DNA from: a virus
Reading direction: 5' to 3' (one strand)
DNA length: 64,000 nt
Virus record (IMG/VR): IMGVR_UViG_3300028909_000017
Span: 61,415 to 125,414 of that record
A program made the translations under genes and the position numbers. Every line of letters starts with the position of its first letter. The stretch's first letter is position 1. This document shows positions 24,104-61,738 of the stretch, in pieces. The notes beneath the pieces are model-generated. The model was not told where the DNA came from and did no database searches. It saw nothing but the letters and a program-made list of their open reading frames with translations.

Positions 24104-24109
24104 ATAAAC

Positions 24110-26393: not shown

Positions 26394-26395
26394 TT

Positions 26396-27849: not shown

Positions 27850-27854
27850 ATATG

Positions 27855-27862: not shown

Positions 27863-27867
27863 GTTTT

Positions 27868-27941: not shown

Positions 27942-27949
27942 GTGAAAGT

Positions 27950-28024
27950 TGGAGCCCCGAGCCGGAATTGAACCGGCGACATTTCGCTTACAAGGCGAAT
28001 GCTCTACAACTGAGCTACCGGGGC
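27950..28024 (-). tRNA. tRNA-Thr(TGT)
   Basis: Acceptor GCCCCGG/TCGGGGC with one wobble, CCA encoded, anticodon stem TTCGC/GCGAA, loop CTTGTAA. Confidence 0.92.
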
Positions 28025-28048
28025 ATACTAATATTTATCTTTAATCTT

Positions 28049-28123
28049 TGGTGCTCCTAGGCAAAATCGAATTGCCATTTTCAACTTAGGGGGTTGTTTT
28101 CTTATCCGTTAGAAGATAGGAGC
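28049..28123 (-). tRNA. tRNA-Arg(CCT) with C33
   Basis: Acceptor GCTCCTA/TAGGAGC, A73, CCA encoded. Anticodon stem CAAC/GTTG, loop CCCCTAA: C at position 33 instead of the near-universal U. Confidence 0.8.
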
Positions 28124-28128
28124 AAATT

Positions 28129-28707: not shown

Positions 28708-28709
28708 TA

Positions 28710-29384: not shown

Positions 29385-29386
29385 TT

Positions 29387-30036
29387 TTAATCTTCTAATG
29401 GTAAATTATTTTCTTCCCTTAATTTTCTTAAACCAAAATATGAATATATTTCAGCAAATTTTTTCGATGATTCAGATAAAATATATTGATAATTTTGATA
29501 ACTTTTTCCAACCCCAAAATATTTTTGCATTTCTTCAAAGGACTTAAAATGTTCAAATGATTCTCCGGGTTTACTTCTGTTGTATAAAGAAATTTTATGA
29601 CCATCGTTAAATAATTTTTTCCGAATTTTAAATCCATCGTCACTAAGAGTTTTATCGCTGCTAAGACAAACATTATTTCCGCAATCCTTTAAAATCGATA
29701 AATATAAATCGATCGCATATGGTTGTTTTCCAGTATATTTTGGATCTTTTCCGACCATTCTAACAATGTAGGCATATTTTTGCTTTTCTAAAGTTACGCC
29801 CAAAACAATTTTAGAATTAATTTCAACCCAATAATAAATATTTTCTGTTAACTCCATTTTTTAATACCATTATTCAAGGTAATAATGTTATCCGGATAAA
29901 TCTGTATTATTTCTAAAATAACATTTTTAATACCCGGCCAAGAATTAAACGTCATTTTTTCGGGTGATTCCGACAAAAATGATCTATTAAAATATGTTCT
30001 ATCCGAGCAACTATTAATTATTTCTTTAATTTTCAT
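29387..30036 (-). CDS. Tagged paralogue family 1 (one frameshift)
   Basis: ATG at 30036 opens MKIKEIINS with LSESPE (L-S-E) near residue 27. The frame breaks at GIKKWS; one more A in the six-A run at 29857-29862 gives GIKK-MELTENIYYWV and continues to the end at 29387. The rest is a complete family member. A -1 shift on AAAAAA is possible, but similar breaks in unrelated genes favour a miscount. Confidence 0.55.
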
Positions 30037-30054
30037 TTATATTCCTTTATTTTA

Positions 30055-30132
30055 TGGTGCCCGTGGAGAGATTCGAACTCCCGACCCTTTGCTTAGAAGG
30101 CAAATGCTCTAATCCAACTGAGCTACACGGGC
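30055..30132 (-). tRNA. tRNA-Arg(TCT)
   Basis: Acceptor GCCCGTG/CACGGGC, A73, CCA encoded, anticodon stem TTTGC/GCAAA, loop CTTCTAA. Confidence 0.92.
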
Positions 30133-30139
30133 AAAACTT

Positions 30140-30214
30140 TGGAGCCGTTCCCGAGATTTGCGCTCGGCTCTTATCGTTACGAAGGATAAAAATCGCTATC
30201 TATTATTGAACGGC
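30140..30214 (-). tRNA. tRNA-like, possibly Thr(CGT)
   Basis: Acceptor GCCGTTC/GAACGGC, U73 and CCA are good. The anticodon stem has a C-C mismatch and the T loop reads CGCAAAT, lacking TTC. CGT fits a 7-base loop; a 9-base loop with TCG is the alternative. Degenerate or atypical. Confidence 0.5.
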
Positions 30215-30224
30215 ATAAAATACA

Positions 30225-30461
30225 TTACTTATCTTTTCTATAATGTGTATTATTGTATGACCATTTTTTAAGTTTATTTACCACTTTTACAATTTCCGGA
30301 GTTGTAAAATCCGGATTCATACCGCATAAAAGTTGTCCAATTGGTCGAAAGCTTTTTCTAAGTTGATTTATATATTCCCTTTTAATCTTTAAAGGAAGTC
30401 GGTGATATTGTGCGAGAATAAATATTGCCGTTGCTTCAATTTCATTAAATCTAATTGGCAT
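30225..30461 (-). CDS. Hypothetical helical protein, 78 aa
   Basis: ATG at 30461, right after the family 1 gene end. Helical, basic (IKREYINQLRKSFRP). No family recognised. Confidence 0.5.
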   Translation of the reverse strand: MPIRFNEIEATAIFILAQYHRLPLKIKREYINQLRKSFRPIGQLLCGMNPDFTTPEIVKVVNKLKKWSYNNTHYRKDK

Positions 30462-30462
30462 A

Positions 30463-31133
30463 TTAATCATCTGTTCCCAATGGTGTATTCTCTCGAATTT
30501 TTCGTATTCCGAAATTACTCATCACCGATCCTAACATATAATTTGATTCGCATAATACATATTGGTAATTCTGATATTTTTTATCAGTGTTAAAATAATT
30601 TTGCATATCATCTAATGTTAAAAATTTAACAAACGTTGCCCCTGGCTTATTTTTATCATATAAACCAACTCGATGTCCATTATTATACAACTTTTCCCAA
30701 ATTTTAAAACCATCTTCACTTAATTTATCATCACTCATCAATCGAATATTTTTTCCAATATCTTTTAAAATGTTTAAATACAAATCACTCGCGTAAGGTG
30801 CTTTTCCTGTAAAAATAGGATTTTTTCCCAGTAATTCACCAACAGCCGCCTGTGGTCGTAATGATAAAGAAACTCCGATGGCAAAAACATTATCAATTTC
30901 AATCCAATAAAATACATGCTCCAGGAAAACAATTTTTTAAGTCCATTAGTTAAGTCAATTATACCATTAGCGTATGGTATAAATTCATCTATTATATTTT
31001 TAATTCCTGGCCATGTTGGAAATTTCCCAATATTTATTGGTGATTCATACAACCAGGTTTCATTAAAATCAGTTCTACTTGTTTGCCCGTTGCCCCATTT
31101 TTTATTTTTTAATATAATTTCATTAATTTTCAT
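30463..31133 (-). CDS. Tagged paralogue family 1 (one frameshift)
   Basis: ATG at 31133 after AGGAATATAG: MKINEIILK, with WLYESP (L-Y-E). The first frame ends in nonsense after LKKLFSW; adding one A to the six-A run at 30933-30938 gives LKKIVFLEHVFYWIEID and joins the frame from 30783 to 30463 (SDDKLSEDGFKIWEKLYNNGH). Same position in the gene as the break in 29387. Confidence 0.55.
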
Positions 31134-31139
31134 CTATAT

Positions 31140-31330
31140 TCCTATAATTATTTTTCATTGGTGGGTTACTTATTAACCGCTAGATTAATATATTACCACT
31201 ATTCAGCTAGCCCATCGGACCTCCCATATATTGCCGTGATCGCATATATATTTCGACTGATTTAGGACTGCATCACCTGCGCCTTCCCTTATGTCCACTC
31301 CACAATGCAATGAAAATTTAATCTTTTATA
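31140..31330. other. Non-coding stretch between gene 30463 and tRNA-Val
   Basis: No open frame with a ribosome site seen. Contains short inverted segments (for example GCGATCACGGCAATATATGG) but no clear cloverleaf. Confidence 0.4.
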
Positions 31331-31405
31331 TAGCCGCTCTCGGATTTGAACCGAGGACCTCTTCTTTGTAAGAGAAGCGTTCTAAACCATCTGGACTAAG
31401 CGGCT
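31331..31405 (-). tRNA. tRNA-Val(TAC)
   Basis: Acceptor AGCCGCT/AGCGGCT, A73, no CCA, anticodon stem CTTCT/AGAAG, loop CTTACAA. Confidence 0.88.
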
Positions 31406-31434
31406 TCGTTATAACTTTTTAATATCTTGGACTT

Positions 31435-31558
31435 ACGGCGGAGAATGATAGAAGCATCATCTATCAAGAAGGAGAGCAGCATCCTAGTTCTTATGCGCAT
31501 TATCATCTAGGCCCTCGCTCTTAGTGCGACCTCTTCCGACTGAGCTGTCGTTCTCTCC
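31435..31558 (-). ncRNA. tRNA-like RNA with very long variable/T region
   Basis: The 5' half looks like a tRNA: acceptor GGAGAGA, a D arm with CAGCTCAGTCGGAAG, and TCGC-ACTAAGA-GCGA. It is followed by nested stems (CCTAG...CTAGG, GATAG...CTATC) before an ATTCTCC 3' strand. TAA (Leu) would be the anticodon. A normal tRNA-Leu(TAA) exists at 44834, so this may be a relic or a distinct RNA. Confidence 0.35.
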
Positions 31559-31575
31559 CGTAAATCCACGATATT

Positions 31576-32246
31576 TTAATCATCTGTTCCCAATGGCGTT
31601 TCTTCTCGAATTTTTCTAATACCAAAAATTCCAGTTAGATTACCCAATTCATTTTTTGATTCACACAAAACAAAATTATAATTTCGATAATTTTTATCTT
31701 TTTTGAAATATGATTCTATGTCTGCCAATGTAAGAAATTTTACAAATGTTTTGCCGGGTTTATTTTTATCATATATGGCAACCGTATGACCCAATGCATA
31801 TAATTTTTTCCAAATGTTAAATCCGTCTTTACTTAATTTATCATCACTTTGCAATCGAATATTTTTGCCGCAATCTGCGAGAATATTTAAGTAAAAATCA
31901 CTTCCATACGGCGGTTTTCCTTTCAATTCAGGATTTTTTTCCAGTATTTCTAATTACATTACTATATGGACGTTTTTCTAAAACAGATCCAATTGTTACT
32001 TTTCCATCTTTTTCCACCCCAATAAAATAATTGTTCTGACGTTTCGATTTTATATATTTCTACTGGCAATAAAATTGGTTTGAAAAAATTTTTCATATCC
32101 GAAATTATATCTACCAAACCATCATATGTAGGAAATTCCCCGGTATCTTCGGGTGATTCAATTAAAAAAGATTCGTTAAACGAGGTTCTATCTGTACTGC
32201 CAATTCCCCATTTTTTACTGCTCGAAAATAATTCTTTTATTTTCAT
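31576..32246 (-). CDS. Tagged paralogue family 1 (two frameshifts)
   Basis: ATG at 32246: MKIKELFSS with FLIESPE (L-I-E). Frame breaks at YWGG (GGGG at 32017-32020, should be three) and again before PELKGKPP (seven A at 31934-31940, should be six); with both fixed the protein is full length and ends GIRKIREETPLGTDD. Nearly identical in ending to 30463, so the pair arose by recent duplication. Confidence 0.5.
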
Positions 32247-36428: not shown

Positions 36429-36671
36429 TTATTTTTCTAATAAATAAATTAGTTTTTCTTCATCGGATAATTTACGAGTAATTTCTGATTCTAAAATTAA
36501 TCCTACATTATCAATTTCGTAAGCATTATTTACACTATAAGTCACCCGGCTCGTTAATGTTGCAATTTTGGGGCATTCTTCGTTAATAACATATTCAACT
36601 ATATCTCCGATTTTGAATTTGTATGTGCTATTAGGTAATTCATTTATTGAAACCGGAAGAACTTTTTTCAA
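36429..36671 (-). CDS. SH3/KOW-like small protein family member
   Basis: 80 residues with central YKFKIGDIVEYV and tail TRKLSDEEKLIYLLEK, the two hallmarks of the small family clustered at 60-63 kb. Directly coupled to the family 1 gene upstream (4-base overlap). Confidence 0.6.
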   Translation of the reverse strand: MKKVLPVSINELPNSTYKFKIGDIVEYVINEECPKIATLTSRVTYSVNNAYEIDNVGLILESEITRKLSDEEKLIYLLEK

Positions 36672-37339
36672 TTAATTACTCCTAAATTATTATCTTCACG
36701 AATTTTTCGGGTTGCAAAATGTCCCATTACATTTCCAAAACCAAACTGCGACTCACATAAAACATAACTATAATTTCGATATGATTTATCTTTTTTGAAA
36801 TATTTTTCCATTTCCTCCAATGATGAAAATTTTTCTAAAGTTTGTGTAGGTTTATCCTTTGCATAAAGACAAACTTTATGACCGGAATTAAATAATTTTT
36901 TCCAAATTTTAAAACCATCTTCACTTAATGTTTCATCACTGTGCAAGCAAATATCTTTTTTTGAATCTTTAAGAATGTTCAAATAAACATCAGAAGCAAA
37001 TGGTGGTCGTTTTCTAAATGCGGGATCTTTGCCACTCATACGAACTACTAATGCGTACGGTCTTTTTTCTAATGAAATTCCCAATATTATTTTTTTCTCA
37101 TTTGTAATCCAATAATATATTTGGTCGGTTAATTCTAATTTATGAAAATTTGGTTTAATATTGACCACTTTACTTTCATAATATTCTAAATAATCTTCAA
37201 TTATATTTTTAATTCCCGGCCATGATTCAAATAGGTGATTTTCTGGTGACTCGACTAGATATGTTTCATTGAAGGAACTTCTACCGGTAATATCATTATT
37301 CCATTTGCCGCCAATTCCTAACATTTCATTAATTTTCAT
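36668..37339 (-). CDS. Tagged paralogue family 1, intact copy
   Basis: 223 residues. MKINEMLG tag; YLVESPE (L-V-E) near residue 31. Core DQIYYWITNEKKIILGISLEKRP, FASDVYLNILKD, SDETLSEDGFKIWKKLFNSGH, SYVLCES. TATAAATA lies 20 bases before the ATG, the usual late-promoter distance. Confidence 0.62.
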   Translation of the reverse strand: MKINEMLGIGGKWNNDITGRSSFNETYLVESPENHLFESWPGIKNIIEDYLEYYESKVVNIKPNFHKLELTDQIYYWITNEKKIILGISLEKRPYALVVRMSGKDPAFRKRPPFASDVYLNILKDSKKDICLHSDETLSEDGFKIWKKLFNSGHKVCLYAKDKPTQTLEKFSSLEEMEKYFKKDKSYRNYSYVLCESQFGFGNVMGHFATRKIREDNNLGVIN

Positions 37340-47466: not shown

Positions 47467-48021
47467 TTAGAATAATTCTTTATCGCCAACCCATTTAATC
47501 ATGGGCATAAGTAGATCAATATTTTTCTTTCTTTGCTTGGAAAATGCTTCTGCCAAACTATTTTTGGGGTTAATAATTATTCCTATTTTACCCTCATCAT
47601 TAAACCAATCTTTATCTAATTCTTCAGAAGATACTGGATTATTATTATAATCGGTAATAGAAAAATATTTTTGAAGCCGAGCAACTTTTAATAACCATTT
47701 AAATCCATCAAAAGTTAAATCTTCCGATGGCTTAATTTTTATTTGCCGTTCTTTTTCCAATATTGCCAAAATAATTATCGTTATTAATCCTTTCTTTTTG
47801 GAAATATTTCCGAGTCGAATAAGTTCATTATTTAATGTTGTTATTACCAATGAAGTTAAACAATTATTTTCATCTATAGTAAAATATGCAATCGAAGAAG
47901 TTCCAATACTTTTGTAGATTTTTTCTAAATCTACAATTTTATATAATTTAGAATTCAATGGCCTCTTTTTACCTGATGCACTTACTAATTCTGATGACCG
48001 TGTAATTTCATTAATTTTCAT
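47467..48021 (-). CDS. Tagged GNAT-like paralogue, family 2
   Basis: 184 residues. MKINEITRS tag (I-N-E at 3-5). Core KGLITIIILAILEKERQIKI and LTFDGFKWLLKVARLQKYF match 11256 and 39639. GGAAAAAT lies before the ATG. Confidence 0.58.
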   Translation of the reverse strand: MKINEITRSSELVSASGKKRPLNSKLYKIVDLEKIYKSIGTSSIAYFTIDENNCLTSLVITTLNNELIRLGNISKKKGLITIIILAILEKERQIKIKPSEDLTFDGFKWLLKVARLQKYFSITDYNNNPVSSEELDKDWFNDEGKIGIIINPKNSLAEAFSKQRKKNIDLLMPMIKWVGDKELF

Positions 48022-49149: not shown

Positions 49150-49190
49150 GTAATTTCTCCAATAAAATAAGTATAACACATATTAAACAA

Positions 49191-50480
49191 TTAAACAATT
49201 ATATGTTCAAATATTCCTGATTTTATTGAATTAAATCTAAAGACACACGAATTAATATCTTCGAGTGGAACCCGGTACTTTATTCCGGACTTCTTTATTG
49301 CATTATGTATTTCTACCCATTTTGAAGCAATTGGCGAAGTATTATCTTCTCTTAATATTTTCGCAAGTAAAAGTCCCACGGCTTCCTCTTCCTTCCATTG
49401 GTTTAGAACGCGAACTTTACTTAAATTGGTATTTGGATACATACACAAACTTTTTACATATTTGTTTGGTCCACGTCTTGCTATTTCTTTTGCTGCGGCA
49501 CACGGGTCTGGTAAATTCCTGAAAAGAACATTACCGATTGTACTCGAATAAGCACAGTTTACTAATTTACATTCGATATTATATCGGTCACTTAGTTTTC
49601 TGATTTGCCACTGAAACAAGTTTCGGTTCCATTCATTGTTTACTAACCGATTGAAACCACGTCCTTTCTTCGTATTTCGAGAGCCCATTGTTAGTTCTTC
49701 TAAAACAACCATTGATACATGAAAATGTACAGCAAGTTTTATAATTCGACATGCAATTTCTTTTGTTTCGTGATTTCGTTTGTTTTTATTTTTACGAGTT
49801 TTATCAGTAAATTTAAATACTTCGTGAAAAACATCACTGCCATTATCGGTAATTGAAATGCCAATATTATTTGGATTCATATCAATACCAAGTATTCGAT
49901 TTGTTATTTTATCGATATTTTCGATTTTTTCTTGCTCGTAAGTAAGGCAAATTTGATTCTTTTTAAGTAAAACCTGAATCGGCATTTTACTAATATTATT
50001 CAGCAAATAAATTATTTCTTTTCTCTGATTTTTACTTATTTTGAATGGTATTTCTATTTTATTATTCTTGTTTGGCTTATAAATTAAAATATCCTGATCT
50101 AATTTTGAAAAATCAAATAACCGATTTGATTTCTGATTGGTTTCGCCCTGAATTTTAACCGGTCTATTTCTTAATTCATGCCATTGATCAGCGGATATTT
50201 TATTTGACCTTCTCTTTTCAAAGGTTTTTCTTCCACCCCAAATAATTTTATAATCTTTTTTCTTTGATTTATAAATGTTAAATTCTTGAACTGCATCTAA
50301 AACGGCCATTCGTTGAAGATAACATCCTAAATTACTAAACATGGATTTTAGTAAAATACTAATATCTTTTTGAATACTTCCCTCAATAATTCTTTTAAAT
50401 GCAAATCTAAATGCCGATGAATATTCCCGTTGAAATGGAATTATTGGTAAATCGGCATTTAATTTTAGTGTCTTCTGCAT
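49191..50480 (-). CDS. tnpB: TnpB-like RuvC nuclease of IS607 element
   Basis: 429 residues. RuvC pieces: ILGIDMNPNNIGIS (Asp), VVLEEL (Glu) and DPCAAAKEIARRG (Asp). The usual CxxC zinc ribbon before the last motif is not visible. N-terminus LKLNADLPIIPFQREYS with a basic RRKTFEKRRSNK region. TnpB proteins are RNA-guided nucleases that keep their element at the site. Nearly identical over long stretches to copy 2. Confidence 0.82.
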   Translation of the reverse strand: MQKTLKLNADLPIIPFQREYSSAFRFAFKRIIEGSIQKDISILLKSMFSNLGCYLQRMAVLDAVQEFNIYKSKKKDYKIIWGGRKTFEKRRSNKISADQWHELRNRPVKIQGETNQKSNRLFDFSKLDQDILIYKPNKNNKIEIPFKISKNQRKEIIYLLNNISKMPIQVLLKKNQICLTYEQEKIENIDKITNRILGIDMNPNNIGISITDNGSDVFHEVFKFTDKTRKNKNKRNHETKEIACRIIKLAVHFHVSMVVLEELTMGSRNTKKGRGFNRLVNNEWNRNLFQWQIRKLSDRYNIECKLVNCAYSSTIGNVLFRNLPDPCAAAKEIARRGPNKYVKSLCMYPNTNLSKVRVLNQWKEEEAVGLLLAKILREDNTSPIASKWVEIHNAIKKSGIKYRVPLEDINSCVFRFNSIKSGIFEHIIV

Positions 50481-50500
50481 AATTTTATATATTTATATCT

Positions 50501-50605
50501 TTAGAAAGCAATTCTTAAGAGATTGATTTTGCGCCAATAATACAATTTTTGTGGGGAAATACCAAGAAATTTAATTACTTCTCTTGCACTGATATATTTT
50601 GCCAT
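50501..50605 (-). pseudogene. tnpA remnant (serine recombinase, 5' part only)
   Basis: 34 codons: MAKYISAREVIKFLGISPQK then YYWRK, the MerR-like DNA-binding start of copy 2's TnpA, then an early stop. The catalytic resolvase part is deleted. Confidence 0.8.
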
Positions 50606-50622
50606 GATAAATACTCCCCTTT

Positions 50623-51711: not shown

Positions 51712-53133
51712 CTAAACTTCAGCAAGTGAACGAATTTCATCAAGAGTCTGGTGGCGAATAACTTTCCCATTACGAAAGACCAATTCTAATTGATCTCCAT
51801 ATACACCATTTCCAGATTCATCCTGCACTGTGCTAAACAAACCGGTACTTTCAGAATAAATTAATACTGGCCGACCTTTGAATGATGCCTTTGTTGGATC
51901 TCCCTTTGGCTGCTTAAATACCGGAGTATCTACATCATTGAGTCGAATATTACAGAATTTCATTGCCGATTTCATTGAATCTCTGTTTACTTTTTGCAGA
52001 AGTCCACCGCCCATACCCACGATAACATTTTCCACACTCCAACCAGATAACCTCAGTGTTTCATATAATTTGCGAATGCTAAAAATATCCATACCATCGC
52101 CCCAAAGTAATCCAACACAAGGGCTAAGAACTTTAAAACCTTTACTATTGACGGTATAGCCAAATTTTTCAGCCAAGATGTCGAGTAAAATTGGAACCTT
52201 GATTGATGGATCTCCTGAATCTGGACGGGCAACAACTTTTGTTTTACCATGAAGAATTTGATCACGGAAAGTTCCACCCATAATTTCTCGAACGAAATAT
52301 TCATCATCGTAACTATCAATAACCATACTTACAACCGGCGCATCTTTATAAACTCCCAAAATTCGACTAACAACATTTCGTTCGCCGTTAGGACCTTCCA
52401 TCGTCATTACAAAATGCTCACTAGCAGGAACACTATAAGCTGATACGCGAGGAGCATCATAATATTGATGCAGCAAACTCATTGCAATTCCGGTATCTGT
52501 TCCCTTAAAATTAATAAGATGCGCAGCTCCGCCAATAGCTGCCTGTGTTCCACAAGATACCGCTCGCCCACCAAAATCATGCAACATGAACGGTAAGCCA
52601 TCATAAGATTCGGATGTAATAGTAAGATATTCCTTGGCTAACTTTTTAACTTCCCGACTCTGCGTAGCAACGATACTCCCGTACCAATTACGCATGAATC
52701 GAGTTTCACACCATCCGGGCAGCCATGCACAATTTTCATCGGTACTTTCAACCGTGAAAACAACATTATTAACGCCGTTATTGGAAATATTAAATGGGCG
52801 TCCTTCCTTGATTGCACGAATTTCAATCGGAAGTCTCCCATCATATTTGTCAAGAATATATTGCCATTGTGCCTTAGGGTATGGGAATCCATCATAAAAA
52901 TGGACCTGACTGTCAGCATATGCTTCGTCAAGATTTTCCTGAGTGAAGAATTTGCCTTCAAATTCGGCCATTAATTGATATTGCAATCCAAAAAATACGG
53001 CTTCGCTATAAATACCTCCTCGATTGCAATAATAATTCATTGCTTGTGAAAGAGTATGTGGGAGCATCGCGGGGTGGGTTTTTTTGTAGGAATCGTCATC
53101 AAGAAGCGGATTAATTACGAGTGGTTGTGGCAT
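51712..53133 (-). CDS. nadV: Nicotinamide phosphoribosyltransferase
   Basis: 473 residues, the usual NAMPT length. Landmarks: DSYKKTHPAMLP (start), FGLQYQL, RPFNISNNGVNNVVFTVEST, then ENCAWLPGWCETRFMR, HDFGGRAVSCGTQAAIGGAAHLINFKGTDT (here in part), YSVPASEHFVM, and VVARPDSGDP with GLLWGDGMD binding PRPP and Nam. It makes NMN from nicotinamide and PRPP. With NMN adenylyltransferase at 57400 it completes a two-step route to NAD+. Own promoter at 53158-53186. Confidence 0.95.
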   Translation of the reverse strand: MPQPLVINPLLDDDSYKKTHPAMLPHTLSQAMNYYCNRGGIYSEAVFFGLQYQLMAEFEGKFFTQENLDEAYADSQVHFYDGFPYPKAQWQYILDKYDGRLPIEIRAIKEGRPFNISNNGVNNVVFTVESTDENCAWLPGWCETRFMRNWYGSIVATQSREVKKLAKEYLTITSESYDGLPFMLHDFGGRAVSCGTQAAIGGAAHLINFKGTDTGIAMSLLHQYYDAPRVSAYSVPASEHFVMTMEGPNGERNVVSRILGVYKDAPVVSMVIDSYDDEYFVREIMGGTFRDQILHGKTKVVARPDSGDPSIKVPILLDILAEKFGYTVNSKGFKVLSPCVGLLWGDGMDIFSIRKLYETLRLSGWSVENVIVGMGGGLLQKVNRDSMKSAMKFCNIRLNDVDTPVFKQPKGDPTKASFKGRPVLIYSESTGLFSTVQDESGNGVYGDQLELVFRNGKVIRHQTLDEIRSLAEV

Positions 53134-53157
53134 TATATTCCTTTCAATTATATTACG

Positions 53158-53186
53158 ATTATATACTATTTCCGTTATTAAAGCAA
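53158..53186 (-). promoter_or_regulatory. sigma70-type promoter for nadV
   Basis: TTGCTT (53181-53186), 17-bp spacer, TATAAT (53158-53163). Confidence 0.7.
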
Positions 53187-53189
53187 GAA

Positions 53190-53696
53190 TTAATTTCGGT
53201 CAAAACCGACCGAAGTTCCGATACCGTCTTGTGTACGCGGCTTGTTTTTCATGCTTCGAAGCCTATTTAAAACAATATTATACGGTTGTTCGAGGCACAA
53301 AACAGCAGCAGATAATTCTCTTAGATGTGCAATGCTTAATTGATCGGTATCAACTACCCATTGTTTAAGTTCTTTCTTTGACAATTCAGGAGCAACCGTT
53401 TGCAAATACATTTCACGGGCGGCGGCGGTTGGCATTCCGACCAAAATACGTTCATCAAATCGTGAAGGTCGATTAATAATTCGAGCACCCAAACGGTCTG
53501 GATAATTTGTCGTGGCAACCATAACGATATTCTCTACTTGATTTTCACCGTCTAATAATGCTAATAATTCGTGTTCACCATAACGAGAAATAATTTCATC
53601 AATATCCTCGAGAATACAAATAATTCTTCGATCGGGTTCAATCCTGCGTAACGCTGACAATCCATCAGATGTCATGGAAGGATTATTACACATGAT
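53190..53696 (-). pseudogene. AAA+ ATPase, C-terminal half, cut by IS607 element
   Basis: Resumes with FIMCNNPSMTSDGLSALRRI, then IICILEDIDEIIS (Walker B), VATTNYPDRLG (sensor 1) and NRPSRFDERI (arginine finger) and a helical end. The N-terminal half with Walker A is at 55684-56160. The join point falls in the strand after the first helix. Confidence 0.8.
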
Positions 53697-53732
53697 AAAG
53701 TAACTTTCCCAATAAAAACAGTACAACGAATA

Positions 53733-55020
53733 TTAAACAATTATATGTTCAAATATTCCTGATTTTATTGAATTAAATCTAAAGACATTAGACCTGATTG
53801 AATCTAATGGAACCCGGTACTTTATTCCGGACTTCTTTATTGCATTATGTATTTCTACCCATTTTGAAGCAATTGAAGAACAAGAGTCCTCCAATATTTT
53901 CACAAGTAAAAGTCCCGCGGCTTCCGCTTCCTTCCATTGGTTTAGAACGCGAACTTTACTTAAATTGGTATTTGGATACATACACAAACTTTTAACGTAT
54001 TTGTTGGGGCCTCTACGGGCTATTTCTTTTGCCGCGGCACATGGATCTGGTAAATTTCTGAATAAAATATTTCCAATAGTTGAACTATATGCGCAATTAA
54101 CTAATTTACATTCGATGCCGAATTTATCTGATAATTTTCTTATTTGCCATTGAAACAAATTTCGGTTCCACTCGTTGTTTACTAGCCGATTGAAACTACG
54201 GCCTTTCTTTGCATCTTTTGCGCCCATTTTAAGTTCTTCAAGAACAACCATTGACACGTGAAAATGTATGGCAAGTTTAATAATTCGACATGCAATTTCT
54301 TTGGTTTCGTGATTTCGTTTGTTTTTATTTTTACGAGTCCGATCAGTAAATTTAAACACTTCATGAAATACGTCTTTACCCGAATCGGTAATTGAAATGC
54401 CAATATTATTTGGATTCATATCAATTCCAAGTATTCGATTTGCTATCGGTTGTTCTATGAATACTTTTTCTTGTTCATAAGTTAGACAAATTTGATTCTT
54501 TTTAAGTAAAACTTGAATCGGAATCTGACCGATTTTATCTAATAAATAAGTTATTTCTTTTCTCTGATTTTTACTTATTTTGAATGGTATTTCTTGATGA
54601 ATATTTTTACTGGGTTTAAAAATTAAAATATTATCTGATAATTTTGAAAAATCAAACATTCGATTTGATTTTTGATTGGATTCACCCTGTATTTTAACCG
54701 GCCTATTTCTTAATTCCTTCCATTGATCAGACGATATTTTATTTGCACTTCGTTTTTCAAAGTTCTTTCTTCCACCCCCAAACAATTTTATAATCTCGTT
54801 TCTTGGATTTATAAATGTTAAATTCTTGTACGGCATCTAAAACAGCCATATGTTGCAGATATGAACCCAAATTAGGGAATTTGTCTTTTAGAAATGATCG
54901 AACTTCTTTTTGGGTATAATTATCTGTAATTCTTTTGAATGCAAATCTAAATGCCGATGAATATTCCCTGTGAAATGGAATTATTGGTAACTCGGCATTT
55001 AATTTTAGTGTCTTCTGCAT
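53733..55020 (-). CDS. tnpB: TnpB-like RuvC nuclease (frameshift at G5)
   Basis: ATG 55020 opens MQKTLKLNAELPIIPFHREY; frame breaks at VWGWKKEL. Reading five G at 54775-54779 as four gives GGRKNFEKRSANK and joins the frame ending 53733. RuvC motifs ILGIDMNPNN, VVLEEL and DPCAAAKEIARRG as in copy 1. Restored length about 429 residues. Confidence 0.75.
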
Positions 55021-55024
55021 ATTT

Positions 55025-55630
55025 TTATTTATATATATCCGCAGAAAGCAGCTCTTTAGTGATTGTTTTTAGTTGTTTCCTTCTATTGCTATACATTTTC
55101 ATACTGAAATAATGAATAATAGAAATTAAATCTTGGGTAAGTTCTGATTGAAAATCTTCTTCCGCAGTTGCATTAATAACAACAATTTTAACATTCATTT
55201 TATTGAATAATTGCTGAAATGATTCAAATCCAAATCGAACTAATCTATCTTTATATGTCACATATATAGTGTCTACTTCATTATTTGCTACTAGATCTAG
55301 TAGCTGGATAAATCCAGCGCGATTTTCATTCATTCCCGAACCAATATCTTCAATTGATTTATCTGGAATAATTCCGTTTGCTGCGGCATATGTGTGTAAT
55401 AATTGGGTTTGTCGTTTAAGATCATCCACTTGTTTGGTATTTGAAACCCGAGCATATAAAATATGAATCTTTTTAGTTGTTTCGCCTTTAAACTTAGTCA
55501 GATCATACAAATAAATTTTATTTGCAACTTTTATGAAGTCAATTTGATTGGTTTTTCGCCAATAATACAATTTTTGTGGGGAAATACCCAAAAATTTAAT
55601 TACTTCCCTTGCACTGCTATATTTTGCCAT
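55025..55630 (-). CDS. tnpA: IS607-family serine recombinase
   Basis: 201 residues: N-terminal MerR-like helix-turn-helix (SAREVIKFLGISPQKLYYWRK) then a resolvase domain with the catalytic serine in YARVSNTKQVDDLKRQ, DIGSGMNENRAGFIQLL and YVTYKDRLVRFGFE. The order (DNA-binding first) is the IS607 hallmark. Upstream GGAGG ribosome site; tnpB follows within five bases. Confidence 0.9.
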   Translation of the reverse strand: MAKYSSAREVIKFLGISPQKLYYWRKTNQIDFIKVANKIYLYDLTKFKGETTKKIHILYARVSNTKQVDDLKRQTQLLHTYAAANGIIPDKSIEDIGSGMNENRAGFIQLLDLVANNEVDTIYVTYKDRLVRFGFESFQQLFNKMNVKIVVINATAEEDFQSELTQDLISIIHYFSMKMYSNRRKQLKTITKELLSADIYK

Positions 55631-55683
55631 GATAAATACCTCCTTCTATTATTTGTATTTATCATTAATGGTTGTATAAACTG

Positions 55684-56160
55684 CTAGTTAACAATACCAT
55701 TATTTTCGATCAATGTTTTACTTAGTAAGGTTAATGTTGCTGTTTTGCCGCTTCCAGGAGGGCCCCAAAGCAAAATACCTCTCTTGTAAAGTAATCCATG
55801 ATTACGATATCGGTCTTCCATTTTCCAAAAAGTTCTCATACCAGATAATACCTGCTCACTTGAATTATCCGGAAGCATAATTAATGAATCAGTAATAATT
55901 TTAATTCTATTTAGATAAAGTCCATAATCATCACGCTCAAAAGAATATGTGCCTGGTGGCAATTTTTCTCGAGTTAATCCGGCAGGTCGGAAGGTATCAT
56001 TTTTTCCAATTTGCCATTGTCGGAATTCTATATTTGTTGAATCTCGATCGGTTGTTTGACGTTTACCTGGTGATGGGTCACAGTCATTTCGACTATTACT
56101 GCTTAATCGTTTATTAGGATTATTTTCCAATATTTCATTCAATTGATCTTCATCATTCAT
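55684..56160 (-). pseudogene. AAA+ ATPase, N-terminal half, cut by IS607 element
   Basis: ATG 56160 after GGAAGAG (MNDEDQLNEILENNPNKR). Ends shortly after Walker A in LLWGPPGSGKTATLTLLSK. C-terminal half at 53190. Together about 325 residues, a phage AAA+ of unknown target. Confidence 0.8.
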
Positions 56161-56161
56161 T

Positions 56162-56458
56162 CTACTCTTCCTTGTCCTTAAATTTGATCGAAGAATTAAA
56201 CCATTCATTAATTTTTGAAAGTATGAAATTATTTTGGTGGCTGTTATACTTTTTGCAAAGCCAATTTTTAATACGAATACCCAAAAGCATAAATGGAACA
56301 GCAATTAATGTAACAAGAATCATAACTCCCATATACAAATAGATAATAGGAGAAAAAATTAATTGCAGCCAAAAAGAAAATGGGGTAATATAATCAATAT
56401 GTTGAATACCCCACATACTCACAATTTTATATACTAACGAATTTTTATCGATTAACAT
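56162..56458 (-). CDS. Membrane protein, 98 aa
   Basis: Two membrane helices (about 21-60), FSPIIYLYMGVMILVTLIAV, then a basic, charged tail. Next to the AAA+ gene. Unknown function. Confidence 0.55.
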   Translation of the reverse strand: MLIDKNSLVYKIVSMWGIQHIDYITPFSFWLQLIFSPIIYLYMGVMILVTLIAVPFMLLGIRIKNWLCKKYNSHQNNFILSKINEWFNSSIKFKDKEE

Positions 56459-56459
56459 C

Positions 56460-56714
56460 TTATTGCTCCAATTTCTTCACAAGTTTTTCTGAAAAATATT
56501 CTTTCCAAGTTCCGATATTCCATTCGCACGGTTGAATATTATTATAAATATGACCCATTATAAATTCTGGCTTAATAGAATCAATTACTTCAGCCATACC
56601 GATACGCATAATTACATTTTCCCAATTCTTTACAATAATTTCATCATTATTTTCGGAAAAGTCCCAGCTATATTCATATACTATATCGCCGTTTGATTTT
56701 TCTCTATATTTCAT
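56460..56714 (-). CDS. Hypothetical protein, 84 aa
   Basis: Acidic Trp-rich (YEYSWDFSENNDEII), ends WKEYFSEKLVKKLEQ. Only the tail vaguely recalls the SH3/KOW family. Unknown. Confidence 0.5.
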   Translation of the reverse strand: MKYREKSNGDIVYEYSWDFSENNDEIIVKNWENVIMRIGMAEVIDSIKPEFIMGHIYNNIQPCEWNIGTWKEYFSEKLVKKLEQ

Positions 56715-56718
56715 TATT

Positions 56719-57387
56719 CTATTCTTCCAATGGTAAATTATTAATTTCTCGATGCAAACGTATTCTAAAGGATGCCCATGTTTCCGCCTGAGTTTTTAAT
56801 GATTCAGATAATACAAATCTCCACTTTTGAAATTCTTTACCTTTATGATAGAAATTTTTAAGTTCATCTTCTGAATTAATACGAGAAAACGATTTACCCG
56901 GCTCATCGGTATTATAAACTAGCAATTTACATCCCTGTTTAAATAATCTATGCCATGTATTAAATCCTGTTTGACTTAGGGTTTTATCACTGATAATTAC
57001 ATCATTTTTAAGATCTTTAAGAATTAATAAATATAAATCACTTGCGAACGGAGGTTTACTTTTATAATTTTTTGATTTACCCGACATTATAATTGCATAT
57101 CCCCGTGGTTTTCTTTCCAAGGAAACCCCGAGTATAATTTCATGATTATCATTTTCCACCCAAAAATAAATTAAATTAGTTAATTTTAATTTATAAATAT
57201 TATTTTCTAATGGTTTAATTTTGTCATGCGCAATTTGTTTTATTTCTTCTATATCGTGCTTTAATATTTCCCAAGTCGGAAATTCTAAGACATCAGGTGA
57301 CTCAAATAAAAAGGTATAATTAAATGCATCTCGCCCATATTTTCCAGACCAGGTCCTTTTTGCATGTATAATTTCATTAATATTCAT
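56719..57387 (-). CDS. Tagged paralogue family 1, intact copy
   Basis: 222 residues. MNINEIIHAK tag, FLFESPD (L-F-E) near residue 29. Core LIYFWVENDNHEIILGVSLE, FASDLYLLILKD, SDKTLSQTGFNTWHRLF, RFVLSES. The most distant copy, 20 kb from the others. Confidence 0.6.
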   Translation of the reverse strand: MNINEIIHAKRTWSGKYGRDAFNYTFLFESPDVLEFPTWEILKHDIEEIKQIAHDKIKPLENNIYKLKLTNLIYFWVENDNHEIILGVSLERKPRGYAIIMSGKSKNYKSKPPFASDLYLLILKDLKNDVIISDKTLSQTGFNTWHRLFKQGCKLLVYNTDEPGKSFSRINSEDELKNFYHKGKEFQKWRFVLSESLKTQAETWASFRIRLHREINNLPLEE

Positions 57388-57399
57388 TACAATTTTATC

Positions 57400-58488
57400 T
57401 TACCTTCTTGGATAACGTAATTCGGAACTATAGTCTGTTAATTCCGCTGCGCGATCGTTCATTTCCATAATAATAGAACCTTCATCCGGATATGAATCGA
57501 TAATTGATTTATTGTTAATATTCCGATTACTATATAAATAATTTTTTAACATTTTATATAAGATCTTATGTTCGGGTTCAAACATATCTAATGTTACCTC
57601 TTCTAATGGGAAAAATTTTGTATAAGAAATATCATCTCCACCGGTTGTTTCCAACGTGGGAACTTCACCCAAAAAGAAAATAGTCTTTATTGTTTCAGAA
57701 GTATCCTTATATCTCCAATCGGCAATTTGTGTACTTCCGATATATTTAAATGATTGCGGAGCAGTAGATGTTTCCTCGTAACTTTCCATTTTGGCGTCAT
57801 CTTCATAACCAACATTTTCCGGCTTCATCTTACCCATTGCATGACCACCCGGGAATCTCCACCCATTTTCGTCAGATCGTTTCGCTAGCAGTAATTCAAT
57901 ACCAGATGAAAGATATGTATCTGTATTGGGATCATGTGTAGACAGTCCTCGATGAATAATAGCAATATCAACAGTGGGGATTACGCGGTCGAATGTATTT
58001 CTTGTCGCGTAAATAATACCTGCTCGAAAGGAAGGACTATCTATCACAACATTTGTTGCCGCATTTCGTAAGTCTGCTGCGGAAATATTTGGAGATACCG
58101 GCAATGTTAATTCAACAACTTTTCGATGCCCATGATAACTTTTAAGAAAGGAATCTCGACTGCCATATAATGTCGCTTTTCCATATGGAACTCGTTCGGT
58201 AATTAACCGGTCAAGATCAGCACTCCACAATTCATCTGTCTTCCGATTATGGATGGGATAAACTTCATAATTTGGATACGCATTCTGAATCATTTTACGG
58301 CGGGTTTCGAAATCCAATGGATCATTTTTTGTCGGAGCCGTGCCACCTGGCAAGCAACCAACAAAAATAATAACCCGAGGATGAAGATTTCCAACCGCAT
58401 CTAGTAGAGCAATATGACCTTCATGCAACTCTGGAATTTGAAACCGACCAATCAAAACTCCGTAATTCGGTGCCGTAATATTTGACAT
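57400..58488 (-). CDS. nadM: Bifunctional NMN adenylyltransferase / Nudix hydrolase
   Basis: 362 residues from ATG 58488 (AAAGGGAAAATA). N-terminal nucleotidyltransferase: GRFQIPELHEGH, GSRDSFLKSYHGH, ISAADLRNAA. C-terminal Nudix: GWRFPGGHAMGK...ESYEETS. The first domain makes NAD+ from NMN and ATP; the Nudix part in such fusions cleaves ADP-ribose. With nadV this is a complete phage NAD+ rebuilding route, and the Nudix domain can clear NADase products. Confidence 0.92.
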   Translation of the reverse strand: MSNITAPNYGVLIGRFQIPELHEGHIALLDAVGNLHPRVIIFVGCLPGGTAPTKNDPLDFETRRKMIQNAYPNYEVYPIHNRKTDELWSADLDRLITERVPYGKATLYGSRDSFLKSYHGHRKVVELTLPVSPNISAADLRNAATNVVIDSPSFRAGIIYATRNTFDRVIPTVDIAIIHRGLSTHDPNTDTYLSSGIELLLAKRSDENGWRFPGGHAMGKMKPENVGYEDDAKMESYEETSTAPQSFKYIGSTQIADWRYKDTSETIKTIFFLGEVPTLETTGGDDISYTKFFPLEEVTLDMFEPEHKILYKMLKNYLYSNRNINNKSIIDSYPDEGSIIMEMNDRAAELTDYSSELRYPRR

Positions 58489-58519
58489 TATTTTCCCTTT
58501 CAATACACTATCTAATTAA

Positions 58520-58548
58520 ATTATAGCATGAAAAATGATTATTGTCCA
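58520..58548 (-). promoter_or_regulatory. sigma70-type promoter for nadM
   Basis: TGGACA (58543-58548), 17-bp spacer, TATAAT (58520-58525), inside the 3' end of the NADAR gene. Confidence 0.7.
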
Positions 58549-58973
58549 GATAAACCTTCCCGAATTAACATTAAAATTTGTCCAAGATTATTTTCACCGA
58601 TACCGTCGCAAACTCCCCAAAAACAATCCCCCCAAGTATTACCTTCTATTAAAGTTGCATTTCCGGTTGATAATAGTTTTGACCGAAACGGTTCTTTCGA
58701 AAATTTTTGACATAATAGATCGGTAATTAAATCGATTTTAATATTGTCCCAGTCGGGTCTTATTACAACATTTTTTCCAAGTCGTTTTGCCATACCTGCT
58801 GACTTTGCATTACATATTTCGACTCGTTGAGTCATATTCAAAGTTTTTGCTGCCTGATAGGCATGTTCCACCGATGGATATATTGAACTATCAAATGGTA
58901 GAACGATACCTCTCCGAACATATGCAAAATTACTCAAAAAAGCATATTCTTCTGAAAATGAATCAATAATCAT
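58539..58973 (-). CDS. NADAR-family (YbiA-like) hydrolase
   Basis: 144 residues, typical length. FLSNFAY, SIYPSVEHAYQAAKTL, AKRLGKNVVIRPDW, LIEGNTWGDCFWGVCDGIGENNLG and LMLIREG are the full NADAR signature. NADAR proteins act on ADP-ribosylated compounds; family members have been shown to remove ADP-ribose from guanine in DNA. Position between the NAD genes suggests repair of host-imposed ADP-ribosylation. Confidence 0.93.
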   Translation of the reverse strand: MIIDSFSEEYAFLSNFAYVRRGIVLPFDSSIYPSVEHAYQAAKTLNMTQRVEICNAKSAGMAKRLGKNVVIRPDWDNIKIDLITDLLCQKFSKEPFRSKLLSTGNATLIEGNTWGDCFWGVCDGIGENNLGQILMLIREGLSGQ

Positions 58974-59218: not shown

Positions 59219-60223
59219 TTACTTTAGGTTGTAATATTTTCTAAGCCAAGGCAACATCCATACATCCAAATCCTTCTTTAATTCCGTACTCAATTTGGGT
59301 AAGGCAGATGAATCAGCCAATGATTGCAATTTATCGACACCAGAAACAATTTCGTCCCGAATTTTTTCAATATCATGCTCTCCACGAATAATCGATCTAA
59401 GATAATTAGCATAATCTTTATCCAATGGAAATCTTAATTTTTTAGTTGTCAATAAAGTAATTCCTTCATTGATAATTCGAACAGCATGTGCCGTTGCTTT
59501 CCAATCAGAACTAGATATAGAAGCTGCAATCGCTCTAGATCCAAAATCTGAAATAATTGAATCAATCGTAATTAAACTAGTCGAAAATGTATTAGTAAAC
59601 GGTAAAATTTTTGTTAATAATTTAGTGCAGGGTCTCAATGTTTGACCAGTTGAATCAACCGCATATTCTGAAATACCAAAATATTCCGGATAATCATTTT
59701 CAATTTCTTCAGCCAGTTTCTTAAATTCTGCTGCATGATCCATTATTCTATGAGATAACGAAAATTTCTGATATAATCTTTTAACTGCCCTGGCGGCATT
59801 TAATCGATCACCTTTATCAGAATAAATTTTTGCCTGATTAACTGCATATCCTGCCATTGCATTAATATTAGAAGTTAAAAAATGTTCTCGTAATTCCGAG
59901 CAAAATTTCGAAAAACTCCCTTCATAAATGGCCTGCTCGGCATCAACCCCTTCAACAGCAAAACATAATTCTATGGCATATGTTTGCCCTTCTAGGAAAT
60001 CTCGTGCAAAAATGTATAAAGGAATATCTTCGCTATCAATATCCCCGACACCATTTTTTTCACCTAATTTTTTATTTTTATGTTTTACTGAATTTTTCGG
60101 TGCTTTTCCAAGCAGCATTAAATCTAAATCAGGCAATACAACTCTTTTATAATCACGATCAGATGTTGGCATCGTGGTTCCATAAAGTGATGATCCAAAT
60201 AATGTTTCAAACAATACTCTCAT
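59219..60223 (-). CDS. YcgL-type nucleotidyltransferase
   Basis: 334 residues. LFGSSLYGTTMPTSDRDYK carries GS and DxD of the nucleotidyltransferase fold; then LPDLDLMLLGK and a long helical C-terminal region (ARAVKRLYQKFSLSHRIMD). This is the predicted nucleotidyltransferase family found in phages and in bacterial RNA-repair contexts. Substrate, perhaps tRNA ends, is not established. Confidence 0.82.
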   Translation of the reverse strand: MRVLFETLFGSSLYGTTMPTSDRDYKRVVLPDLDLMLLGKAPKNSVKHKNKKLGEKNGVGDIDSEDIPLYIFARDFLEGQTYAIELCFAVEGVDAEQAIYEGSFSKFCSELREHFLTSNINAMAGYAVNQAKIYSDKGDRLNAARAVKRLYQKFSLSHRIMDHAAEFKKLAEEIENDYPEYFGISEYAVDSTGQTLRPCTKLLTKILPFTNTFSTSLITIDSIISDFGSRAIAASISSSDWKATAHAVRIINEGITLLTTKKLRFPLDKDYANYLRSIIRGEHDIEKIRDEIVSGVDKLQSLADSSALPKLSTELKKDLDVWMLPWLRKYYNLK

Positions 60224-60234: not shown

Positions 60235-60447
60235 TTAATTTTCAAGGTACCATTGGAAAATATCTTTTTCCAATATTTTCGTTACTTTCAACCACCAGTT
60301 TTCTTTCCGATTTTTTACGGTAACAATAAGAAAATTATTAGTTGTATCGATGCTGTATATATGACCCAATTCGGTTCCAAATATTGTTGTGTGTATTACC
60401 CAATCTCCAACTTTTAATTCTGTCCCATTTTTATCGAGCATTTTCAT
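60235..60447 (-). CDS. SH3/KOW-like small protein, array member
   Basis: 70 residues: MKMLDKNGTELKVGDWVIHTT, strand-rich middle, tail EKDIFQWYLEN. First of an array of more than ten coupled genes to 63202. Confidence 0.62.
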   Translation of the reverse strand: MKMLDKNGTELKVGDWVIHTTIFGTELGHIYSIDTTNNFLIVTVKNRKENWWLKVTKILEKDIFQWYLEN

Positions 60448-60677
60448 TGCTCCAATTTTTTAACCATAAGATAAGAAATAGCTTTTTCCTCGGATACAAT
60501 TACAACTTTACTGGTCTTCTGAATTCCGCCCCAACGAATATCATTTTCGGTGATCAATAAAATTTTTGTTTTTAAAATGGCATCGACTTTTAATAATATC
60601 AAATCCTGACCCTTATAACCAGGAGTTAATACCCAATCTCCAACTTTTAATTCTATTCCGAAAAAATCTTTCATCAT
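60444..60677 (-). CDS. SH3/KOW-like small protein, array member
   Basis: 77 residues: MMKDFFGIELKVGDWVLTPG; the end YLMVKKLEQ departs from the usual tail but keeps LExQ. Confidence 0.6.
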   Translation of the reverse strand: MMKDFFGIELKVGDWVLTPGYKGQDLILLKVDAILKTKILLITENDIRWGGIQKTSKVVIVSEEKAISYLMVKKLEQ

Positions 60678-60865
60678 TTCTCCAGTAAATAAATCAATAC
60701 TTCATTCTTATTTAATTTCTCAACTTTTGTCGAAATAATTGATCTATTGAAGTAACCATCTTGTAAATATAGATCTAGAAAATTAAAACCAATAATTCGA
60801 TAAATTTCCGATTTAAATCTAACATAATCAAAAATTTCCAATTCATTCCCATTTTTATCGATCAT
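60674..60865 (-). CDS. SH3/KOW-like small protein, array member
   Basis: Start at ATG 60865 (MIDKNGNELEIFDYV), overlapping the upstream stop as ATGA; tail KNEVLIYLLEK. Confidence 0.62.
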   Translation of the reverse strand: MIDKNGNELEIFDYVRFKSEIYRIIGFNFLDLYLQDGYFNRSIISTKVEKLNKNEVLIYLLEK

Positions 60866-61059
60866 TGCGATAATCTCCAAATCATTATTTCATCCTGGGT
60901 AATTTTAATAACTCTTCCGGATTCGATTAATGTTCCCAATAAATCAGAGGTAATATGAACGCTTTTATCATAAAATGCATCAATACAGCATGGCACCGGG
61001 AAATATGGTATATAAACCCAATCGCCAATGTTTAATTTTGCTCCGTTTTTATCGACCAT
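60862..61059 (-). CDS. SH3/KOW-like small protein, array member
   Basis: 65 residues: MVDKNGAKLNIGDWVYIPYF; tail QDEIMIWRLSQ. Confidence 0.62.
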   Translation of the reverse strand: MVDKNGAKLNIGDWVYIPYFPVPCCIDAFYDKSVHITSDLLGTLIESGRVIKITQDEIMIWRLSQ

Positions 61060-61267
61060 TTAATGTTCCAATCTCCAAATCAGATAATTTTTTAATAGAA
61101 GATAATTTCCATCTTTCTGCAAATTTTGTTTCCGAATTAATAAATAGATTAATTATGCAACATTCATTACGAATCGATTTAATTTTACCAACGGCACCAC
61201 GGCGCATATCTTTACACCATAAAACATAATCACCGATTAATAATTCGTTTCCATTCTTATCTGTCAT
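61049..61267 (-). CDS. SH3/KOW-like small protein, array member
   Basis: 72 residues: MTDKNGNELLIGDYVLW; tail altered to LSDLEIGTLNGR. Confidence 0.6.
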   Translation of the reverse strand: MTDKNGNELLIGDYVLWCKDMRRGAVGKIKSIRNECCIINLFINSETKFAERWKLSSIKKLSDLEIGTLNGR

Positions 61268-61271
61268 ATTT

Positions 61272-61502
61272 TCACTGTGTTAGTTTAAAAATTAAAGCAT
61301 CTTCGGGATTCATTTTGTACAATGCGCTGAAATATTTTAACGATTGTGTTTGCCCTTTTTCATTTTTTAGTTCAACCATTTTCTTCGTAAATCGTACTAC
61401 GTAACCGATATCCAATGAATTTGCCCAATTAGAGAAAACAACCCAATCACCAATAAACAGAGGGCGATTAATTCGATCAACAAAAATATGTTCATTATTC
61501 AT
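61272..61502 (-). CDS. SH3/KOW-like small protein, array member
   Basis: 76 residues: opening RINRPLFIGDWVVFSNW, tail NPEDALIFKLTQ. Confidence 0.6.
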   Translation of the reverse strand: MNNEHIFVDRINRPLFIGDWVVFSNWANSLDIGYVVRFTKKMVELKNEKGQTQSLKYFSALYKMNPEDALIFKLTQ

Positions 61503-61510
61503 AAATTTCC

Positions 61511-61738
61511 TTAGTAAGACAACAAATATGCAATTAATTCATCTTCAGACGACAGTTCCATTTCAGATGCCTTTAAATGTATATTCTTGAAAAAATCTAA
61601 TGGTATAAAATCTGATCGACATTCAAAAAATTTGGATTTAATATCTTCGTCCGTAATTCTTCCAAAATACAATTCACGATCGAATTGTATTTTTACAATG
61701 TCGCCTATATGCAATTGATTATTATTTTTGTCAACCAT
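61511..61738 (-). CDS. SH3/KOW-like small protein, array member
   Basis: 75 residues: MVDKNNNQLHIGDIVKIQFD; tail SEDELIAYLLSY. Confidence 0.62.
   Translation of the reverse strand: MVDKNNNQLHIGDIVKIQFDRELYFGRITDEDIKSKFFECRSDFIPLDFFKNIHLKASEMELSSEDELIAYLLSY

What the first reader, a model, noticed from the sequence alone, without database searches (positions are those of the whole stretch)
51712..58973. NAD+ rebuilding and ADP-ribose repair cluster
nadV (NAMPT), nadM-Nudix and NADAR lie within 7.3 kb. NAMPT plus NMN adenylyltransferase matches the phage NAD+ reconstitution route reported to defeat NAD-depleting defences; the Nudix domain can remove ADP-ribose; NADAR enzymes can reverse guanine ADP-ribosylation. 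With the ART-like protein at 5603 this phage seems to handle NAD+ from several sides.
Basis: partly seen in the sequence, partly recalled or inferred. Interest (0 to 1): 0.7.

Follow-up and report, generated by a model that had tools for sequence, protein, structure and literature searches.

The report
Phage NAD+ salvage gene pair
A large phage carries the known two-enzyme pair that rebuilds the coenzyme NAD+ from nicotinamide, in a sequence-divergent but widespread form, with an ADP-ribose-removing enzyme that happens to lie next to it; this is a further member of a known kind of phage system, not a new one.

Summary
In detail: NadV (NAMPT) 51712-53133, NadM-Nudix 57400-58488 and NADAR 58539-58973, all on the minus strand, with catalytic residues mostly intact and all three under purifying selection. 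NadM-Nudix followed by NadV is a real, old cassette: 58 of 60 non-redundant viral/phage loci, and 44 of 53 bacterial loci (mainly Bacteroidota). NADAR is not generally part of that unit: it is adjacent only here and in one sibling contig, 42 kb away in the next relative, and its proximity across 19 records is no better than chance (P 0.08-0.32). Nicotinamide + PRPP -> NMN -> NAD+ is the best reading (as in KVP40 NadV/NatV and NARP2). The Nudix half keeps its metal-binding glutamates but has a degenerate box. Phage NADAR near NadM/NadV was described in 2022. The gap in the cassette holds an IS607 element that splits an AAA+ ATPase gene. The 'ART-like' protein at 5603 belongs to a 7-copy family with an R-S-E-like motif layout, expanded in giant phages, but no profile search confirms an ART, and this copy has Lys for the motif Arg. 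Verdict: new member of a known kind.

The parts
51712..53133 (-). nadV: nicotinamide phosphoribosyltransferase (NAMPT), 473 aa
   Evidence: PF04095/PF18127; PDB NAMPT E 1e-107; Y16, F187, R190, D213, H240, R303, D305, R384 invariant in A3; 84-85% identical in L002 and L009
57400..58488 (-). nadM-nudix: divergent bifunctional NMN adenylyltransferase / Nudix hydrolase, 362 aa from ATG (TTG at 58503 also possible)
   Evidence: PF01467 + PF00293; profile to 2qjt/2qjo; H22-E-G-H25 and I135-S-A-A-D-L-R141; Nudix box M234-E235..E238-E239; far below NCBIfam NadM-Nudix cut-offs
58539..58973 (-). NADAR (YbiA-type) hydrolase, 144 aa
   Evidence: PF08719; 2b3w; E36, K43, E110 conserved; 56% identical in L002, 52% in G003 where it lies 42 kb away
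53697..55689 (-). IS607-family insertion element (1993 bp) inside an AAA+ ATPase gene
   Evidence: flanks rejoin to one 373-aa frame that aligns without a gap at the junction to the intact AAA gene of L015; copy repeated at 49.15-50.6 kb
55025..55630 (-). TnpA serine recombinase of the IS607 element
   Evidence: NF033518 IS607 transposase E 3.5e-50, over cut-off; PF00239
53733..55020 (-). TnpB-like gene of the element, split in two overlapping frames (54757-55020 and 53733-54836)
   Evidence: ORFs; 84%/75% identical to the intact copy 49191-50480
55690..56304 (-). AAA+ ATPase gene, 5' part (Walker A GPPGSGKT)
53190..53696 (-). AAA+ ATPase gene, 3' part; homologous intact AAA genes directly follow nadV in L011-L015 and L057
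   Evidence: PF00004 E 3e-7
56719..57387 (-). GNAT-like protein of a family with several copies in the window; lies between nadM and the AAA gene
   Evidence: A4; AlphaFold pLDDT 60; best PDB fold match a GNAT acetyltransferase E 1.6e-4, TM below 0.5
59219..60223 (-). nucleotidyltransferase (PHROG 388), recurrent neighbour upstream of nadM
   Evidence: phrog_388 E 3e-50; also in L002, L009, L083, L067 and an annotated nucleotidyltransferase near natV in phage OC
5603..6385 (-). member of a 7-copy R-S-E-like (ART-like by motif) family; Lys in place of the motif Arg
   Evidence: no Pfam/PDB/hhalign support

Best explanation
A phage NAD+ salvage cassette. NadV joins nicotinamide to PRPP (taken from the host) to give NMN. 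The adenylyltransferase half of NadM-Nudix adenylates NMN with ATP to give NAD+. The Nudix half probably hydrolyses ADP-ribose or NAD(H)-type pyrophosphates, though weakly or with altered specificity. Shown here: gene identity, active-site residues, purifying selection, old linkage of the two genes. Inferred: the reactions, and that the point is to keep NAD+ available during infection, including when host NADase defences destroy it (NARP2-like). The neighbouring NADAR probably acts separately on ADP-ribosylated guanine or small ADP-ribose/N-glycoside metabolites; its position next to the pair looks lineage-specific rather than a conserved trio.
For: Domain and structure-profile matches. NAMPT residues invariant. 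NMNAT H-x-G-H and the R141 of the ISxxxxR motif retained; R141 invariant in 69 sequences. NadM followed by NadV in 58/60 non-redundant viral/phage loci and next to NadV in 44/53 bacterial loci, with an NrtR-type regulator gene just upstream in L107. PRPP synthetase directly downstream of NadV in L053, in a family seen in 4 loci. Well-supported viral clade for both enzymes. Purifying selection. Functional precedent: KVP40 NadV/NatV (cited in PMC7139368) and NARP2 (cited in PMC11984713, PMC12028318).
Against: No activity tested. NadM is far below the NCBIfam bifunctional NadM cut-off (24.5 vs 397 bits). The usual Thr of the ISxTxxR motif is Ala here. The Nudix box lacks its Arg (Met) and carries a 4-residue insert. 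Host unknown, so whether the host lacks this route or has NADase defence is unknown. No PRPP synthetase found in the record, so PRPP must come from the host.
Confidence: 0.8

Rival explanations
1. The pair serves general NAD supply (metabolic support of phage replication), not defence evasion; it is a host-type salvage operon kept by a large phage.
For: The same NadM-NadV order is found in Bacteroidota genomes, including very large contigs of named Chitinophaga strains, with an NrtR-type Nudix regulator in at least one Bacteroidota locus. KVP40's pair was described as a salvage pathway (PMC7139368 citing Lee 2017). dN/dS gives no hint of an arms race.
Against: NAMPT/NMNAT pairs are reported to defeat NAD-depleting defence (NARP2, cited in PMC11984713, PMC12028318). 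Both roles are compatible.
Confidence: 0.4
2. A true functional trio: NADAR, Nudix and NadM/NadV together reverse ADP-ribosylation and recycle the products to NAD+.
For: NADAR adjacent in the window and in L002. NADAR near NadM and NadV reported before in phages (PMC9503650). NADAR active-site residues intact.
Against: In G003, whose NadM is 73% identical, the NADAR relative is 42 kb away. NADAR in 19/46 records but not closer than chance. Guanine-ADP-ribose hydrolysis yields ADP-ribose, which NadV/NadM cannot use directly (pathway knowledge).
Confidence: 0.15
3. The pair feeds NAD+ to the phage's own NAD-consuming enzymes, the expanded ART-like paralogs.
For: Seven copies plus a split copy of an R-S-E-like family in the same 125-kb record. 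T4 uses three NAD-consuming ARTs (PMC10468400).
Against: ART identity unproven. Among the searched records that carry this NadM, only G000, G003 and W02 have any member. The giant phages with 11-14 copies were found through the ART-like protein, not through this NadM.
Confidence: 0.1

Closest known systems
Vibrio phage KVP40 NadV/NatV NAD+ salvage; Ochrobactrum phage vB_OspM_OC natV-nadV
   Same: In OC, NadM-Nudix (NatV) and NadV lie on the same strand with small ORFs between, a nucleotidyltransferase gene upstream and a NADAR elsewhere; OC NatV aligns over the full length by profile (prob 98.4, E 7e-15)
   Different: Sequence subfamily is distinct: BLASTP of window NadM to OC NatV gives only short weak pieces, best 31% over 62 aa; tblastn with window NadM finds only 5 of 50,697 phage records; no PnuC/NadR seen next to it
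NARP2 (Nampt + NMN adenylyltransferase; Osterman et al. 2024, cited in PMC11984713)
   Same: Both enzymes of the two-step nicotinamide route present
   Different: Counter-defence activity untested here; the NMNAT half is fused to a Nudix domain
Phage NADAR-NadM-NadV neighbourhoods (Iyer et al. 2022, PMC9503650)
   Same: Same three families in one neighbourhood, already described
   Different: In this NadM subfamily the NADAR link is seen in two sibling genomes only
YbiA-family NADARs (PMC11125620, PMC11543638)
   Same: E36, K43 and a YbiA-type Glu110; no fold extension (144 aa)
   Different: Not of the gp30.3 type (His) or the DarT1-linked type (Asp); below the riboflavin N-glycosidase cut-off (56 vs 73.7 bits)
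Bacteroidota nadM-nudix/nadV operons
   Same: Same divergent NadM family and gene order
   Different: Bacterial, with an NrtR-type regulator gene upstream in L107; the window cassette sits in a separate well-supported viral clade

Membership tests
NAMPT (NadV) | PF04095 + NAMPT_N over cut-off; catalytic His and Arg/Asp pairs | tested here: met
   H240, D213, R303, D305, F187, R190, Y16
NARP1 (Namat + Adps) | Partner Adps gene (expected to resemble PRPP synthetase, own knowledge) | tested here: not met
   no PF13793 match in G000 (record may be incomplete); best structures are canonical NAMPTs; Namat clamp residues not mapped
Bifunctional NadM-Nudix (NatV) | Full-length match of NMNAT + Nudix; (H/T)xGH and ISxTxxR motifs | tested here: met
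   full-length to 2qjt; HEGH and R141 kept, the motif Thr is Ala; a divergent subfamily
Active Nudix hydrolase | GX5EX7REUXEEXGU box | tested here: inconclusive
   E235, E238, E239 kept; R is Met, G is Ser, 4-residue insert
NARP2 | NAMPT + NMNAT encoded together | tested here: met
NARP2 | Restores NAD+ against NADase defence | not testable with these tools
   needs infection assays
NADAR, YbiA type | Catalytic Glu/Lys and Glu in the last strand | tested here: met
   E36, K43, E110
ART superfamily (5603 protein) | Detectable similarity to a known ART family | tested here: not met
   no ART family in Pfam or PDB; hhalign to T4 ModB prob 4%, ModA 0.5%; AlphaFold pLDDT 40, unusable
ART superfamily (5603 protein) | R-S-E motif triad | tested here: inconclusive
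   present in most of 20 family members, but R is Lys in 5603

The most novel reading that the evidence does not exclude
This phage (and giant relatives) injects or expresses a large set of unrecognised ADP-ribosyltransferase-like effectors marked by a shared N-terminal MKINEI-type targeting motif, and the NadM-NadV cassette with NADAR sustains and cleans up after that NAD+ use.
Probability: 0.08. Interest if true: 0.7.

Novelty: new member of a known kind. Interest (0 to 1): 0.3.

Why it matters
It adds a divergent NadM-Nudix subfamily, missed by standard NadM models yet paired with NadV in 58 of 60 viral loci, to the catalogue of phage NAD+ reconstitution genes, so counts of such phages are probably too low. 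It also warns that a NADAR lying beside the pair need not be part of it. The multi-copy R-S-E-like family in giant phages is the more open question.

Tried and rejected
(1) NADAR as a conserved third member: rejected as a general rule by the distance test. (2) NARP1 reading: no PRPP-synthetase-like gene. (3) Macro-domain partner: none in G000, G001 or G003. (4) ART identity of 5603 by Pfam, PDB profile and hhalign to T4 ModA/ModB: no support; single-sequence AlphaFold too poor (pLDDT 40). (6) Group I intron/IStron idea for the AAA interruption: no Rfam match other than tRNA; the clean junction supports a plain IS607 insertion. (7) My first guess of a GG target site did not restore the frame; the junction at TT did.

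Full report
What is there. The window is the last 64 kb of a 125,414-base virus record, 34% G+C, with 29 tRNA genes predicted in the window. All named genes of the finding lie on the minus strand. NadV (51712-53133) matches PF04095 and PF18127 and solved NAMPTs at E 1e-107. NadM-Nudix (57400-58488) matches PF01467 and PF00293 only just over their cut-offs and no solved structure by single sequence. A profile of eight relatives, however, hits the Francisella and Synechocystis bifunctional NMN adenylyltransferase/Nudix enzymes 2qjt and 2qjo, over the full length for 2qjt. NADAR (58539-58973) matches PF08719 and E. coli YbiA.

Active sites. In NadV the residues that correspond to human NAMPT Tyr18, Phe193, Arg196, Asp219, His247, Arg311 and Asp313 (numbering and roles from my own knowledge) are present as Y16, F187, R190, D213, H240, R303 and D305, and are invariant among six relatives. 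In NadM the HEGH motif and R141 of the second motif are intact; the Thr of that motif is Ala. The Nudix box keeps E235, E238 and E239, but the usual Arg is Met (Arg in 47 of 69 relatives, Met in 3) and a four-residue insert precedes it; both features are shared by the two closest relatives. By general Nudix knowledge this predicts reduced or altered, not necessarily absent, hydrolysis. In NADAR E36, K43 and E110 match the catalytic Glu, Lys and YbiA-type Glu of PMC11543638.

Linkage. A scan of IMG/VR with the NadM profile found 184 relatives, of which the best 80 were kept. After collapsing at 90% identity there are 60 loci (with the window and phage records), and in 58 NadM is followed by NadV on the same strand, median gap 4 nt; the window's 4.2-kb gap is the longest. 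The same pair occurs in 44 of 53 bacterial loci, mostly Bacteroidota; in Flaviaesturariibacter (L107) an NrtR-type regulator gene lies just upstream, and Nudix-like ORFs that may be the same lie upstream in many others. Trees of both enzymes place the window with L002 and L009 (support 1.0) inside viral clades (0.98 for NadM, 0.976 for NadV), so this does not look like a recent host acquisition. dN/dS is low for all three genes against L002, with dS near saturation.

NADAR is a different case. It is adjacent to NadM in the window and in L002 only. In G003, whose NadM is 73% identical, the NADAR (52% identical) is 42 kb away. Of 46 records tested 19 carry a NADAR; random placement gives 0.47 expected within 2 kb against 2 seen (P 0.08; P 0.32 without the sibling) and 1.9 within 10 kb against 4 seen (P 0.10). 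The trio is therefore a local arrangement, not a demonstrated unit. With only 19 records the test has little power, so a weak tendency is not excluded.

Prior knowledge. PMC9503650 states that in phages with their own NAD+ synthesis NADAR domains occur in neighbourhoods with NadM and NadV, that every NadM phage has NadV, and that the system counters NADase effectors. PMC7824862 makes a similar argument for jumbo phages. PMC7139368 describes natV and nadV in phage OC and cites KVP40's functional pathway; its annotated neighbourhood shows natV, small ORFs, nadV, and a nucleotidyltransferase upstream. NARP2 is cited in PMC11984713 and PMC12028318; the NARP2 paper itself was not read here. What is new is the divergent subfamily: 24.5 bits against a cut-off of 397 for the NCBIfam model, 5 of 50,697 phage records by tblastn, yet very consistently paired.

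The interruption. Between NadV and NadM an AAA+ ATPase gene is split by a 1993-bp IS607-family element (53697-55689). Joining the flanks gives one open frame of 373 aa that aligns through the junction, without a gap there, to the intact AAA gene of L015; such genes lie directly after nadV in L011-L015 and L057. TnpA is a clear IS607 transposase. The element's tnpB is split by a frameshift, while a second copy at 49.15-50.6 kb keeps an intact tnpB and only a remnant of tnpA.

The 5603 protein. It belongs to a family with seven copies plus one split copy in this record, 13 matches in Agrobacterium phage Atu_ph07, 11 in Salicola phage SCTP-2 and 14 in LR756508, the Atu_ph07 ones largely in tandem. 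Twenty members share, with exceptions, (L/I)(Y/F)RG, RSxS.CTT and a late E, the layout of R-S-E ARTs such as T4 ModB (R73-G74; PMC10468400), but Pfam, PDB profiles and hhalign to ModA/ModB show nothing. The 5603 copy itself has YKG. The ART label is a lead, not a result.

Verdict. The best reading is an NAD+ salvage pair of the KVP40/NARP2 kind (0.8 for the biochemical function). Whether its main use is counter-defence or supply is open. Interest is modest because the system is known.

Noticed in passing
G000 20081-30622 (L093) and window 5603-6385: Seven paralogs plus one split copy of an R-S-E-like family of unknown function (PHROG 12810 for the 5603 copy), hugely expanded in giant phages Atu_ph07, SCTP-2 and LR756508.
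   Followed up: partly
first codons of about 15 ORFs in G000, e.g. window 5603-6385, 28710-29384, 47467-48021, 56719-57387: N-terminal motif M[KRN]I[NKTDR]E[ILMV] at the first Met of 15 of 275 ORFs versus 1 of 666 other Met, shared by unrelated families; possibly a capsid-targeting-type signal like that of T4 internal proteins. Several carriers are paralogs of one another, so the count overstates independence.
   Followed up: partly
window 53697-55689 and about 49150-50614: Two IS607-family copies that complement each other: one with tnpA and a frameshifted tnpB, one with intact tnpB and tnpA lost. The TnpB has no Pfam match and only a sub-threshold TIGR01766 match; relatives occur in Prevotella Lak phages.
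   Followed up: partly
window 28710-29384, 29387-29857, 30463-32246, 36668-37339, 56719-57387: GNAT-like family with about eight whole or partial copies; the fold match to GNAT acetyltransferases is weak.
   Followed up: partly
window 60235-61738 and elsewhere: Array of small paralogous proteins of about 70 aa with a 'DKNGxxLxIGDWV' start, also present in L002.
   Followed up: no
L053 7318-8313: PRPP synthetase gene directly downstream of NadV, in a family seen in 4 of 60 loci, which would supply the NadV co-substrate.
   Followed up: partly
window 9135-47195: At least 29 tRNA genes spread through the window.
   Followed up: no
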